In this document: one piece after another, positions 18,413-38,718 of the stretch
Numbering within the stretch: the stretch's first letter is position 1
Layout: each line of letters begins with the position of its first letter
NCBI GenBank assembly: GCA_001592805.2
Contig: CP051139.1
Coordinates: 3,038,001-3,102,000 of the forward strand
Length of the DNA: 64,000 nucleotides
Origin: Peltaster fructicola
Lineage: Eukaryota > Ascomycota > Dothideomycetes
Reading direction: 5' to 3'
Position numbers and translations under genes: made by a program
Notes under the pieces: generated by a model
What the model was told of the DNA's origin: nothing
The model's database searches: none
Seen by the model: the letters and a program-made list of their open reading frames with translations, nothing else

Positions 18413-20554
18413 CTATTTCACTAACTCGTCCTCTTCATTGAACAGCAACTCCTGAGCGTTCCAGAGTTCGGCATATATGCCTCCTTTGCTCAGCAGTTGG
18501 TCGTGAGTACCTTGCTCCGCCACTGCACCCTCTTTGAGCACGATGATCAAGTCCGAATCGTAGATCGTCCTTAGCCGATGTGCTATGAACACACTCGTAC
18601 GGCTCTTCTCCTTGATCAGGCCGTTGATCTCATGCAGAAGACCTTGCTCTGTGTGGGTGTCAAGAGCGCTTGTCGCCTCATCAAAGAACAAAAGAGGCGG
18701 ATCCTTGAGTATGAGACGGGATATGGCTAGTCTCTGCTTCTCTCCACCCGAGATCATCATGCCTCGTTCGCCAACCTTCGTGTCATACCCGTCAGGCATG
18801 GTGGCTATAATCTGATCAATCTTTGCTTTCTGTGCTGCTTGCTGCACCTCCGCATCTGTCGCGGACAATCGACCATAGCGGATGTTGTGCCGTATCGTGT
18901 CGTTGAACAGAGGAGTCTCTTGTGGCACCACGCCTATACTTCGTCTCAGGCTGTCCAGACTGATCTTAGAGATGTCTTGGCCATCAATAGTGATACGGCC
19001 TGATTGAAGGTCGTAGAAGCGGAATAGTAGACGTAAGAGTGTACTCTTGCCGCAACCGCTGGGACCAACGATAGCCACTTTCTTGCCAGCAGGTATGGTC
19101 AGATCAAGACCCGTGAGAATCGGTCGGTCAGGTCGATATGCGAATGCAACATTCTCGAAGCGGATTTCGCCGCCTTGTAGCTGCAGTGGTGGAGCGTTAG
19201 CTACTTCCTTAACGGTTACATTGACTTTCTGCAGGTTGAAGAGTGTTTCCATGTCGAGAAGACTCTGGCGCAGCTCTCGGTACACGGATCCAAGGAAATT
19301 CAGAGGAACACTCAGCTGGAAGACAAGCTGATTGACCATGACAAGGTCGCCGACTGTCAGAGAGTTAGTGGCGACACCTTGTGCAGCAAAGTACATCATG
19401 GCCGTAAGTGCTGAAGAAAAGATCAGGTTCTGACCGCTGTTGAGGTATGCCAAGCTTGTAGCCACCTTGATACTAGCATCTTCATAGCTCTTGAGCGCTG
19501 CATCGTATCGGCCGACTTCATACTTCTCATTGTTGTAGTATTTGACGGCCTCATAGTTGATCAAGCTGTCCACTGCTACGGTGGCACCTTTGTTGTCAGC
19601 AGCATTAGCCTGCCGCCTGAACTTGGTCCTCCAAGCTGTCGTGGCGATGGTGAAGCCAGAGTATGCGATCATGGTCCCAGCTGTGATCAGAGCGAAATTC
19701 CAGCCGTATTGCCAAGTCAAAATACCACAAACGAGGGAGATCTCCAACGCTGTAGGTATGATGTGAAAGACCATGCTAGTGAGCAAGAAGCTGATGCCTT
19801 TTGTTCCTCGATCTATCGCCCGTGTGAGCCCTCCTGTTTGTCTGGAAAGATGGAAATTTAGATCTAGCTTGAGAAGATGCTCAAAGACATTGCCAGCTAC
19901 TCGTCTGATGGCTTTCTGCGCCACAGAAGCAAAGACAGCATTGCGTATTTCTTGGAATAGAGTTGCGCAGATTCTTGTAGCACCGTACGCGAAGATTGCG
20001 GTTCCTGCCACTGTCATTGCAGTGCCGCCTAACGTCGTGAAGTCGATGTTCATCGAGTCGACGATAGACTTGAAGTAGAAAGGAACTTGCACGTTCAGCA
20101 CCTACCACAATCAACGAGAGTCGAAAACATGTGAGGAGCCGCAAACCTTCGCACCAATGAGCAGACCAATACTCAAGCCTACTCTGAACTTGGTGTTGAA
20201 GTCATTCTTAGGCCAGAGGTACTGCACCATGTCCTTGATGATGGCCCAGTCAGCAGTTCTTTGCTCCTTATTCGACACTTGTGGTACAGCCAAGGGGTCC
20301 TTGGTCGATATCGAAACCTGTGAAGGCGGCTGTTGCACAGCATTTTCTGGTTTGACACCTTGTTGGGGTGTGTTGCCATCATGTAGCGCAGCTTGCGTCG
20401 TCCGGGCATTGTCCTTTCTGTGTTTGGGCGTTGTGGTATATACACGATTGTGACAGTGGGAGGAGAGCGTGTAGATTGCTCGTGCAGGGGTCGCAGGAGC
20501 GTGGAACCGAGCACAGCATGCCAGGCCAGGCATGAAAAGTCGAGAAGTAGTCAT
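18413..20554 (-). CDS. ATM1: Mitochondrial iron-sulfur cluster ABC transporter Atm1
   Basis: Half-size ABC exporter of the mitochondrial inner membrane. It exports a sulfur/glutathione-linked compound needed for cytosolic iron-sulfur protein assembly. Exons are 20147-20554 and 18413-20101, with a 45-base intron in phase; 698 residues. The first about 100 residues are basic and Ser/Thr-rich, consistent with a mitochondrial presequence. The membrane domain follows, with the Atm1-typical [17 protein letters not shown], the [18 protein letters not shown] span and the [14 protein letters not shown] segment. The nucleotide-binding domain has Walker [11 protein letters not shown]-loop region VVPQETPLF, signature [13 protein letters not shown], Walker [13 protein letters not shown] and the H-loop IAHRL. 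Call very secure. Confidence 0.96.
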
Positions 20555-35739: not shown

Positions 35740-37473
35740 CTTTGATGGAAGAAAACATCATCTGTCACCGATGAGGTAATCAATGGGAAGGAAGGGCGAT
35801 ACTAGAGCCAAGCGCAACCAACGAGAGGGGTAGACCTTGTATATCCGTCAGGTGATACCAAAACGACGTTGTGATCAGTGAGTCTCAGAGCTTGAGGAGA
35901 TTGTATACATTCACTCGCAGTAGGGAGTTTGGGGTCTTTGTAGCACTGGCGATGGCTGTAGGACGGTGAAGTTGCAACATGGGCTTTTCGCGCGTACACA
36001 TACTTGCTGCCACTGGAAATAGGAAATCGAAGGCTCCTTGTTCGTAGCCCTCATCGCCAGGCTTGTGTTGTGTTGTTGCAGCAGCTCCAGACGAAGGGCA
36101 GTAGGTGGGCCTCCCCGATACTGAGCCCTTCTCAGCACCCTGTTCCTGGGTCTGATCGGTCCTGTGGTATTCACCCTTGTCATTCCAGGAGGTGTTCTCC
36201 TTTTGTCCGCTTACGCCTCACCATCGTTACTGTCATCCTACGCGTCCTTCTCTTGATCTAGAGCACTTGGTAGAGGCTGCTGAGAGATGACCTCAAAGCA
36301 GGTATTTGAGGATTCGAGTGGAGCGCATTCTATTGACCATCTGTACAGGTCCGAAAGTTGGTGTATCGTGGATCTGACACAGCAGGTCGTGGCTCGATTG
36401 TGGTAGGTGTCGATTGTCTACGTACGAGACGGTAGAGTGGGATTGGCGAGGGTTTGTTGTTCTTCTGCAGTCACTCGTGGTACTCTCGAACAAAGCTTTT
36501 CTCCTTTCACGCATCTTGTACGATGACTCTTATGATGGGACGCGGTGGTATTGTTCGGCATCCACAGGACGTTTTGCACCACAGGCATGCTTCGACAGAT
36601 TTCCATATGAAGGTTCGTGTGTACTGCTCGTACATGAGCAGCATGCTCTTCCTGTGCAATTCCACTCACAGCTTGCTCAGCACCTGAGGCTACACAGTCT
36701 GTCTGGTGGAAGGTTGTTCTATCTGGTGCCGACTATTGTCAGCCGAAGGACGAGATTGCCACGGTCGCTTCGTTGCGTGTTCATAAGGTACAGAATGGAT
36801 GAGGCTGGCTGTGTTCGTGGTCAACGATGTCCTGTGGCTTGTAGGCATCGTGGCCGGCGCCTGCTGGTGAGGTTAGAAGTATGACCGTGGTTGGCTTGCA
36901 GAACAAAGATCAGCTGCACGACTGGCCGCACTGCATCCTGCTTGAAGACTCGCAAAACTGCTCTGGCGAGCCTTGTAGGTCGCCAGAGAGTGCATGCTAA
37001 GGCTCTGGTAGCGAGGAGGATCTCATTGCCAATAACTCGAAAGCTTGCCCATGGATACGGAGGTGATGTTGTACAGCTTGAAGGTGTAGTCACAGATGCC
37101 GCATGTCCGATAGCTCTACGACAAACGCACCTCTTGCTGTAATGCCGTGCTCGGTCGACATGGTTGTGGCCTGAATCATGTACTCAAAGCTGACACGTGC
37201 TGTTTGAATGCCCAGACAGTTGCCAAGGCTGCTTCGATGCGTTCGAAGACGGTTTGCTATCTGTCGACGGTGAGTTGCATCGCAGGGTCGTGTTGCTGCT
37301 CTAGCGGTTGCTGTGCCCTCGCCTCGCGCTCCCGGCATCATCACACCGCTATGTCTTGACCGTGAGGAGATTCTTCTCCAGACCATGCTCGTAAAAGCAG
37401 TGAACTGATGAAAAAGAGGTAGTAGTAAGAGTGAATTCGCGTCAGCAAGCGGCAGTGCAAAGCAAGCGACACA
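35740..37473. other. Stretch of 1.7 kb without a resolved gene
   Basis: No complete gene could be built. The minus strand between about 36780 and 37390 has long overlapping open frames in more than one phase (36821-37093 and 37090-37386). One segment near 37197-37256 reads like an amphipathic helix (FERIEAALATVWAFKQH). This hints at a multi-exon gene I could not join. Intron-like signals occur (GTGTCA donor, TTACAG acceptor) but no consistent phase chain resulted. Nothing convincing was found on the plus strand. Confidence 0.3.
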
Positions 37474-37676
37474 GTGGTCAAGGACATAGGCATAGCCCAG
37501 CGGCCCTTAACCTGGTTTCAAAAATTGTTATGACATAAAGTTTGGCTTGCGCCAAGATCTAAGTTGTCATACTTAGAAGAACAGATACTCTGTGAAGTGT
37601 TATTAGTGATAGTTTGATCGTTCGGACAGGAGTGGATACTAACACACTTGATCTTAGCCAAAAGGCAAAGAGAGCT
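37474..37676 (-). ncRNA. U2: U2 spliceosomal snRNA, interrupted by a 54-base intron
   Basis: U2 base-pairs with the intron branch site in the spliceosome. Exon 1 (37644-37676) carries the conserved start TCTCTTTGCCTTTTGGCTAAG and then GATCAAGTGT. Exon 2 (37474-37589) begins AGTATCTGTTCTT. Joined, they give GATCAAGTGTAGTATCTG, the near-invariant branch-recognition region of U2. Downstream are stem-loop IIa (CTAAGT with ACTTAG around a six-base loop), stem-loop IIb (TTGGC-GCAA-GCCAA), an Sm site AATTTTTG at 37519-37526, and a 3' terminal stem GGTTAAGG with CCTTGACC (37476-37483). Spliced length is about 149 bases, shorter than the usual 185-190, with only one stem after the Sm site. RNA ends are estimated by alignment in mind with yeast and human U2. 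Whether this is the only U2 copy cannot be told from this window. Confidence 0.93.
37590..37643 (-). other. mRNA-type intron inside the U2 snRNA
   Basis: The 54-base insert begins GTTAGT, contains CACTAATAAC about 12 bases before its end and finishes TTCACAG. These are 5' splice site, branch site and acceptor like those of the protein genes in this window. It splits the U2 element GUAGUA that pairs with branch sites: GU at the end of exon 1 and AGUA at the start of exon 2. The six bases AGTATC occur both just inside the intron (37635-37640) and as the first bases of exon 2 (37584-37589). Splicing itself is inferred. Confidence 0.85.
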
Positions 37677-37711
37677 GAGGAGTGTAAGAGGGTTGCAGGG
37701 AGAAGAAAATA

Positions 37712-37717
37712 CTTATA
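37712..37717 (-). promoter_or_regulatory. TATA-like element upstream of U2
   Basis: TATAAG lies about 36-41 bases before the inferred 5' end of the U2 RNA, a usual spacing for an RNA polymerase II TATA element. It is a single short match, so weak on its own. Confidence 0.4.
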
Positions 37718-38718
37718 CCAGTACTCGTGAACCGTGCACTGCATTGTTGTTGGGTCAACTTGGCACATCAACGGTACGGATCGTCCAATAGCGCTCAGGC
37801 TTGTGAAAAGCCTGAGCAGAAGTAATCCAGTGAATGCTGAATTCAGCTTAGTGACGATCGTGGTTCAAGGGCCATCGGAGACGCACCAGTGACTGTCGTG
37901 CAGTTGGCTCACGATAAGCCTGAGGCCACCAAGATCACCTGCTTGTGAGCAGCATCGGTCGTTGCACGGCATGCCTGCGTAGTCTCTGCATTGTTGAACG
38001 ACGCTGCGAAGCCTCGTTGCTGCCTCTGATAAGGGGCGGCAGGGCCGAGCATGAACCAGCGGCAGGTTGCATCGTGTGGCCGTTGCTGAGGCGATCGCGT
38101 TAGGCTCTGCTAACGACTTGTCAGTAATGCTGCAAGGACTTGATGACCATTGTGCCAACGTTGGCCATCCGTCGATTGCATAGCGACCACCAACAGCCTT
38201 ACGAACCTTTGCATGCATCCCGATGCTCAGAGATAAGCTGAGGACGAAGGATAGGAGCGCCACAGGCACAATCCAACCAGAGGACTCACAGTCGGCGTTC
38301 GCTGGCAGCTCGAGGAGCGTATGGAGCGTTTCAGCTGGACGACAGCCCCTATCTCGACATCGCCAAGGCCTATGGTCCAAGCAACAGGCATGGCGATCCT
38401 TGAGACCATTCCGGATGGCACTCCCAGCTCTCCTCAGACTTGGGAGCCAGTGGTGACGCTTGAGAACGATGACAATGTCTATAGCCGAACGAGGTGATCA
38501 ACCTGAATCCTTCAGGTCACTGAATGAAGGAGCAAGCACGGCGATCTCTGGGACGACTCCTGTAGACCTGATCAGCTCTTTTCGAATTCCTTCATTCTTA
38601 TTACTACCCTCACAACTATACGCGCCTCTACCTACAGTTCGAGATCTTGTCTGTGGCGCCGTCGCACATGCAATCACTGCCTCGCAACTCCTGCCAAGAG
38701 AGCTCCTAGGTCCCAACT

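What the first reader, a model, noticed from the sequence alone, without database searches (positions are those of the whole stretch)
37474..37676. U2 snRNA gene split by an intron exactly inside its branch-point recognition element
Seen directly: minus-strand U2 with GATCAAGTGT, then a GT...AG insert of 54 bases, then AGTATCTG. Removing it restores GATCAAGTGTAGTATCTG, the most conserved part of U2, and cuts GUAGUA as GU|AGUA. Known: mRNA-type introns are reported in U2 of the basidiomycete yeast Rhodotorula hasegawae (next to the branch-recognition sequence) and in U6 of fission yeast. I know of no case described for a filamentous ascomycete. Inference: U2 maturation would depend on the spliceosome, hence on mature U2. 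This is a self-dependent loop that could act as autoregulation of spliceosome level.
Basis: partly seen in the sequence, partly recalled or inferred. Interest (0 to 1): 0.96.

Follow-up and report, generated by a model that had tools for sequence, protein, structure and literature searches.

The report
Intron splits U2 branch-recognition RNA
In an apple-surface fungus, the only standard-type U2 gene found (U2 is a core RNA of the splicing machine) is itself interrupted by an intron in the middle of its recognition site, while a second, uninterrupted U2 gene carries a changed recognition letter, so the fungus may have to splice its own splicing RNA before it can read one class of introns.

Summary
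The minus strand of about 37436-37678 encodes a U2 snRNA of Peltaster fructicola. A 54-nt GT...CTAAT...CAG insert (37590-37643) lies between U34 and A35 of the branch-recognition element; removing it restores GAUCAAGUGUAGUAUCUG. The genome search found one other U2, C1:958184-958376: intronless, but with GCAGUA instead of GUAGUA (U34 to C) and G31 to U. The copies differ by 11 compensatory base-pair changes (12 of 20,000 permutations reach 11). Both lie in a full snRNA gene frame: GGTATAAGTA upstream and TTTTTCATCA downstream, shared with a U1 and a U4 gene. Introns of this genome use CUGAC and CUAAC/CUAAU branch sites. By pairing, C34-U2 fits CUGAC and mismatches CUAAY; U34-U2 fits both. The U2 intron itself has CUAAU. 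Best reading: two U2s with different reach, the standard one needing splicing, chiefly by earlier copies of itself: positive feedback rather than a brake. Transcription, splicing and division of labour are inferred; RNA data are needed. mRNA-type introns in fungal U2 and U6 are known, so this is a new variant of a known kind.

The parts
37710..37719 (-). GGTATAAGTA box, 41 nt upstream of the U2 5' end (46 nt in the second U2 copy)
   Evidence: One match in the window (0.04 expected by shuffling). In the 264 kb of own genome read (window plus L017-L036) it occurs twice: here and before a U1 gene; also before the second U2 and one U4 copy.
37644..37678 (-). U2 exon 1, ending on U34 (human numbering, recalled); last two bases GU of the branch-recognition element
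37590..37643 (-). 54-nt spliceosomal-type intron GTTAGT...CTAAT...CACAG
   Evidence: typical length, branch spacing and CAG end; rare donor
37602..37606 (-). Likely branch site CTAAT, branch A at 37603, 13 nt before the intron's end
   Evidence: CTAAT class used genome-wide, 92 pattern matches against 19 in the reversed control
37436..37589 (-). U2 exon 2, starting AGUA of the branch-recognition element; stems IIa, IIb, IIc, Sm site, III, IV
   Evidence: Rfam RF00004 match
37565..37571 (-). Loop IIa strand UAUGACA of stem IIc
   Evidence: 7 of 7 pairs with 37529-37535
37529..37535 (-). Downstream strand UGUCAUA of stem IIc
   Evidence: Same place as in the second copy and in L003
37519..37526 (-). 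Sm site AAUUUUUG
37476..37512 (-). Stem-loop III, outer helix GGUUAAGG/CCUUGACC, 8 of 8 pairs
37438..37474 (-).
   Evidence: Rfam alignment
37406..37415 (-). TTTTTCATCA downstream element shared with the second U2, a U1 and a U4 gene
   Evidence: one match in the window (0.14 expected)
37367..37379 (-). GGAGAAGAATCTC downstream element shared with the second U2 and the U1 gene
   Evidence: one match in the window (0.01 expected)

Best explanation
The locus is a working U2 snRNA gene whose transcript must lose a 54-nt spliceosomal intron before it has a complete branch-recognition element (GU|AGUA). P. fructicola carries two diverged U2 snRNAs. The intronless one has C34 (GCAGUA) and pairs best with CUGAC branch sites. 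The intron-bearing one, once spliced, has the standard U34 (GUAGUA) and also serves CUAAC and CUAAU sites. Its own intron has a CUAAU site, so it would be spliced mainly by already mature U34-U2: a self-priming, positive-feedback loop, with C34-U2 as a poor but possible backup. Shown by sequence: the insert's form and exact place, the two copies, the difference at position 34, compensatory change between them, the shared snRNA gene frame, and use of both branch-site classes in the genome. Inferred: transcription of both, removal of the intron, division of branch sites between the two RNAs, and self-dependent maturation.
For: Exact restoration of the conserved U2 core and intron-like form. Two U2 places in the genome, the other with GCAGUA; no third found with two conserved words. 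Of 31 compared helix positions 11 are compensatory, 0 pairs lost in the window copy alone, 3 lost in the other alone, 1 unpaired in both (permutation mean 5.3, 12 of 20,000 reach 11). GGTATAAGTA and TTTTTCATCA flank both U2s, a U1 and a U4. Branch classes: in 80 short predicted introns CTGAC 27, CTAAC 14, CTGAT 8, CTAAT 7, others 4, none 20; genome-wide CTGAC 429 against 99 control, CTAAC 182 against 76, CTAAT 92 against 19. Helix energies: U34/UACUAAC -0.7, C34/UACUAAC +2.0, U34/UACUGAC -0.7, C34/UACUGAC -2.7, U34/CACUAAU +1.1, C34/CACUAAU +3.7 kcal/mol. The assembly was polished with about 256x Illumina reads (passage), so two base errors at these letters are unlikely.
Against: No RNA evidence at all. 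The donor GTTAGT is rare (0 of 136) and the computed helix of CACUAAU with U34 is weak (+1.1). CTGAC is common in ascomycetes whose U2 keeps GTAG (review passages), so the CUGAC class does not require a C34-U2. The 7-bp stem IIc by length alone is reached in 45 of 2,000 shuffles. The second copy lost three helix pairs, so it may be the weaker gene. The 5' splice site pairs with the branch region over 12 bp, which could hinder splicing, though total folding is ordinary. No relative was available to show that the pair is kept by selection.
Confidence: 0.58

Rival explanations
1. Both U2 genes work and are largely interchangeable; C34 is a tolerated change and the intron a neutral gain that either U2 can splice.
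For: Both copies keep U2 structure and gene frame; real branch helices are helped by proteins, which the computed energies ignore.
Against: C34 faces a mismatch with A in CUAAC and CUAAU, costing about 2.6-2.7 kcal/mol relative to U34, and these sites are in wide use.
Confidence: 0.2
2. The intronless C34 copy is the failing one; nearly all working U2 comes from the intron-bearing gene, so U2 supply is fully self-dependent and mature U2 must be handed on from cell to cell.
For: All three helix pairs lost in only one copy are lost in the C34 copy, which also has two changes in the most conserved region.
Against: It scores higher against the Rfam U2 model (121.4 bits), has the snRNA upstream and downstream elements, and 11 compensatory changes.
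Confidence: 0.14
3. The window gene is a dead or dying copy; the intronless C34-U2 does all the work.
For: The insert breaks the key element and its donor is rare.
Against: No helix pair is lost only in this copy, stem IIc is rebuilt with new letters, the standard element is restored exactly, the flanking snRNA elements are intact, and CUAAC/CUAAU sites remain in use.
Confidence: 0.05

Closest known systems
mRNA-type intron in the U2 gene of the yeast Rhodotorula hasegawae (Takahashi et al. 1993; only the title seen, in a reference list; content recalled)
   Same: Short mRNA-type intron in a fungal U2 gene beside the branch-recognition element
   Different: Recalled position is just downstream of the element; here it is inside it, between U34 and A35, in a filamentous ascomycete that also has a C34 paralogue
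Introns in fungal U6 snRNA and U3 snoRNA (PMC5832005, passages; Canzler et al. 2016 title only)
   Same: Spliceosomal introns in core small RNA genes, near functional elements
   Different: That paper names U3 and U6 as the only small structured RNAs known to be often interrupted; here it is U2, at its pairing element
Engineered U2 variants that suppress branch-site mutations (yeast and mammalian work of the 1980s-90s, recalled, nothing seen)
   Same: A second U2 with a changed recognition letter pairing with a changed branch site
   Different: Here the pair would be natural
CT(G/A)AC branch sites with GTAG-type U2 in fungi (PMC10638238, passages, citing Nguyen et al. 2020, not held)
   Same: Both branch-site classes in one ascomycete genome
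   Different: Most fungal U2 genes are said to keep GTAG; here one of two U2 genes has GCAG, the full complement of the CTGAC class

Membership tests
U2 spliceosomal RNA (RF00004) | Sequence and structure match to the family model | tested here: met
   76.2 bits with the insert present, gathering score 46. The spliced form could not be scored, since only held DNA is accepted.
U2 spliceosomal RNA (RF00004) | Branch-recognition GUAGUA, stems I, IIa, IIb, IIc, Sm site, stems III and IV | tested here: met
   GUAGUA only after removal of the insert; helices and Sm site present
U2 spliceosomal RNA (RF00004) | Expressed and assembled into an snRNP | not testable with these tools
   No RNA data
Spliceosomal (U2-type) intron | GT-AG ends, branch motif at the usual distance, usual length | tested here: met
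   GTTAGT...CTAAT-13 nt-CAG, 54 nt; the donor hexamer is rare, 0 of 136
Spliceosomal (U2-type) intron | Removed from the RNA | not testable with these tools
   Needs reads joining 37644 to 37589
Intron shared by descent with other fungal U2 introns | Same position, and presence in related species | tested here: inconclusive
   No fungal genomes held; exact-pattern scan of a prokaryote collection found 0; position differs from the recalled R. hasegawae one
Pair of U2 snRNAs with divided branch-site specificity | Each RNA pairs best with a different branch-site class, and both classes are used | tested here: met
   By computed pairing and counts only; U34 pairs with both classes, so the division is one-sided
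Pair of U2 snRNAs with divided branch-site specificity | Loss of one RNA affects its class of introns | not testable with these tools
   Needs gene removal and RNA-seq

The most novel reading that the evidence does not exclude
P. fructicola runs a natural pair of U2 snRNAs with different branch-site reach: C34-U2 for CUGAC introns and U34-U2 for CUAAY introns. The U34 form bootstraps itself, because its gene carries a CUAAU intron exactly between U34 and A35. The level of mature U34-U2 would then be a feedback-set, possibly heritable switch over the A class of introns, roughly a third of those assigned (22 of 60).
Probability: 0.38. Interest if true: 0.95.

Novelty: new variant of a known kind. 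Interest (0 to 1): 0.83.

Why it matters
The branch-recognition letters of U2 are among the least variable of the spliceosome. A species with two diverged, structurally sound U2s that differ at position 34, one of which must be spliced at that very point, would be a natural test of how far U2 pairing sets branch-site choice, whether two major-type U2 snRNPs can share the work in one cell, and how a cell lives with a core RNA whose production needs that same RNA.

Tried and rejected
Rejected or set aside. Chance resemblance: Rfam match and exact restoration. Dead copy. Sequencing error: polishing with about 256x Illumina (passage). Further U2 copies: Rfam search scored 45 of 200 candidates and gave two; AGTATCTGTTCT has 8 exact matches, two of them these genes and six in sequence without the rest of U2 by eye; TTGGCTAAGATCAA has 2 exact matches, both these genes, and 10 with one mismatch that I did not read. 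U1 and U5 family searches of the genome found nothing, nor in the controls, so they say nothing; a U1 gene did turn up in L023 below its gathering score (44.1 against 69.5). Same thing elsewhere: viral contigs 0; genome contigs 0 for the intron form and 5 stretches with 6 matches for the degenerate core. U2 matches the model in four of these (L003, L004, L006, L007; L006 and L007 lie on one contig), each with U34; L005 has the C34 spelling in a bacterial contig with no U2 match; the second match in L006 has no U2 match. Hairpin idea: 5' splice site and branch region are expected to form 11.5 pairs, more than in any of 136 predicted introns (median 1.2, largest 10.2), but 126 of 136 fold at least as well per base and the shuffle z-score is -0.42; kept as a side observation. 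The helix energies failed (100000) and were redone.

Limits. Introns come from my own gene finder, not checked against the annotation: 182 called in 264 kb, 46 outside 45-90 nt dropped, 136 kept; 80 of those (up to 60 nt, ending CAG or TAG) used for the branch table. Pattern counts include some places counted twice (two CAG behind one donor); CTGAT was not counted genome-wide. The permutation treats the helix positions that I aligned by hand. Absence from print rests on searches of an open-licence library. Davila Lopez 2008, Canzler 2016 and Nguyen 2020 are not held; Takahashi 1993 was seen as a title only. Numbering of U2 positions is recalled.

Full report
What is there. On the minus strand, Rfam U2 matches 37610-37431 at 76.2 bits, with the first part misaligned because of an insert. 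Reading the strand gives TCAGCTCTCTTTGCCTTTTGGCTAAGATCAAGTGT, then 54 nt beginning GTTAGT and ending CACTAATAACACTTCACAG, then AGTATCTGTTCT and the rest of U2. Deleting 37643-37590 restores GATCAAGTGTAGTATCTG. In human numbering (recalled) the insert lies between U34 and A35, in the middle of GUAGUA, the element that pairs with the branch site.

Where it is. A window protein (18413-20101, minus) is 100% identical to a Peltaster fructicola protein on a contig of 4,890,228 bases, the length of contig C1 of the window's genome. The genome has 18,987,130 bases in 5 contigs, which fits the published chromosome-scale assembly of this apple-surface dothideomycete; that paper reports about 256x Illumina polishing and a median intron of 50 bp (PMC7181583, abstract in the listing and passages).

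The second U2. A search of the whole genome with the U2 family finds two places: the window gene and C1:958184-958376 at 121.4 bits (45 of 200 candidates scored). The second is intronless but reads GATCAATTGCAGTATCTG: position 34 is C and position 31 is U. Two conserved U2 words give no third gene: AGTATCTGTTCT has 8 exact matches, two in these genes, and TTGGCTAAGATCAA has 2 exact matches, both these genes, plus 10 with one mismatch that were not read. So the one standard GUAGUA U2 that I could find in this assembly is the one with the intron.

Is either dead? The two RNAs are nearly alike in stems I and IV and the inner part of stem III, and differ in stems IIa, IIb, IIc and the outer part of stem III. 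Of 31 compared helix positions, 11 changed on both sides and still pair, 1 on one side, 15 are the same, 3 are unpaired only in the second copy, none only in the window copy, and 1 in both. Shuffling the 3' strand letters within each stem gives 5.3 double changes on average and reaches 11 in 12 of 20,000. In the window copy loop IIa UAUGACA and downstream UGUCAUA form a 7-bp stem IIc at the place where the second copy (6 bp) and a U2 from an unrelated eukaryotic contaminant contig (L003, 7 bp) form theirs; by length alone such matches arise in 45, 210 and 29 of 2,000 shuffles for the three RNAs. [quoted passage not shown]

Both sit in a full snRNA gene frame. GGTATAAGTA lies 41 nt (window) and 46 nt (second copy) upstream. 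In the 264 kb of own genome that I read as one body (window plus L017-L036) this box occurs twice: before the window U2 and at L023:583, where a U1 gene follows (44.1 bits, below the gathering score 69.5, E 1.3e-9; sequence beginning AUACUUACCU). It also precedes one of two U4 copies (L037, not L038). Downstream, TTTTTCATCA follows both U2s, the U1 and the U4 of L037, and GGAGAAGAAKCTC follows both U2s and the U1; in the same 264 kb each occurs only at the U1 and the window U2. One TTTTTCATCA match in L003, a foreign contig, is taken as chance. This is the pattern of live snRNA genes.

Is the insert an intron? In predicted introns, CTRAY motifs pile up 5-14 nt from the 3' end. Among 80 short ones the assigned motifs are CTGAC 27, CTAAC 14, CTGAT 8, CTAAT 7, others 4, none 20; shuffled interiors give about 1 each and 71 with none. 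The U2 insert has CTAAT with 13 nt after its A, and CAG. Against it: GTTAGT is not the donor of any of 136 introns. Donor and branch regions are complementary over 12 bp with one bulged A, more than in any of 136 introns, but the fold as a whole is ordinary. If this pairing matters it would slow splicing; that is speculation.

What follows from pairing. Position 34 faces the base before the branch A. U34 pairs with A and wobbles with G; C34 pairs with G alone. Computed helix energies (unmodified RNA, no proteins) are -0.7 for U34/UACUAAC, +2.0 for C34/UACUAAC, -0.7 for U34/UACUGAC and -2.7 for C34/UACUGAC; for the U2 intron's CACUAAU they are +1.1 with U34 and +3.7 with C34. Genome-wide, behind GTAAGT and before CAG, CTGAC occurs 429 times against 99 for the reversed pattern, CTAAC 182 against 76, CTAAT 92 against 19. 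Both classes are in use and the G class is larger. A review says that multicellular ascomycetes use CT(G/A)AC and that most fungal U2 genes keep GTAG, hence wobble (PMC10638238, passages). So the G class does not demand a C34-U2; but C34 is its matching partner. In yeast Pus7 makes the pseudouridine at the equivalent of position 34 and recognises UNUAR (PMC7960923, passages). In the window gene UGUAG at this place exists only after splicing, and in the C34 copy it is absent; that this matters is inference.

Mechanism and limits. The best-supported model is two U2s with overlapping but different reach, where the standard one has to be spliced and its own intron belongs to the class that it reads and C34-U2 reads badly. 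That is positive feedback: mature U34-U2 makes more of itself. Nothing here shows transcription, splicing or division of labour. No relative could be examined: the large held genome sets are prokaryotic; the intron form has 0 matches in genome contigs and the U2 core 0 in viral contigs.

Novelty. Introns in U6 and U3 of fungi are well known (PMC5832005, passages), and one in U2 of R. hasegawae is in print (title seen; details recalled). An intron inside the recognition element, with a paralogue altered at the same junction letter, did not appear in the searches I made, which cover an open-licence library only. I file it as a new variant of a known kind; the two-U2 reading, if true, would be stranger than that.

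Change on checking. A look back at the flanking boxes added the U1 gene and the shared downstream elements, which lowered the dead-copy rival from 0.07 to 0.05 and raised the novel case slightly.

Noticed in passing
L023 625-784 (own genome, C1 near 1,060,600): A U1 snRNA gene beginning AUACUUACCU, below the Rfam gathering score (44.1 against 69.5), with the same upstream and downstream elements as the U2 genes; the whole-genome U1 search had missed it.
   Followed up: partly
L037 and L038 (own genome C3:2819063-2819195 and C3:1355036-1355165): U4 also has two diverged copies; L038 has AAUCUUUGG at the Sm site and lacks the GGTATAAGTA box, but keeps TTTTCATCA downstream.
   Followed up: partly
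37635-37640 and 37584-37589: AGTATC stands both near the start of the intron and at the start of exon 2, a 6-base direct repeat that might be a trace of how the intron was gained.
   Followed up: no
37637-37643: The unspliced RNA contains GUUAGUA, the exact complement of UACUAAC with no bulged A; an unspliced U2 that entered an snRNP might block branch sites.
   Followed up: no
37601-37650: AAGUGUGUUAGU (exon 1 end and donor) pairs over 12 bp with ACUAAUAACACUU (branch region) leaving one bulged A; more donor-branch pairing than in 136 predicted introns, ordinary total energy.
   Followed up: partly
L001 1501-1693: The C34 copy also has G31 changed to U, which by the recalled branchpoint-interacting stem-loop model would loosen that stem-loop's closing pair.
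   Followed up: no
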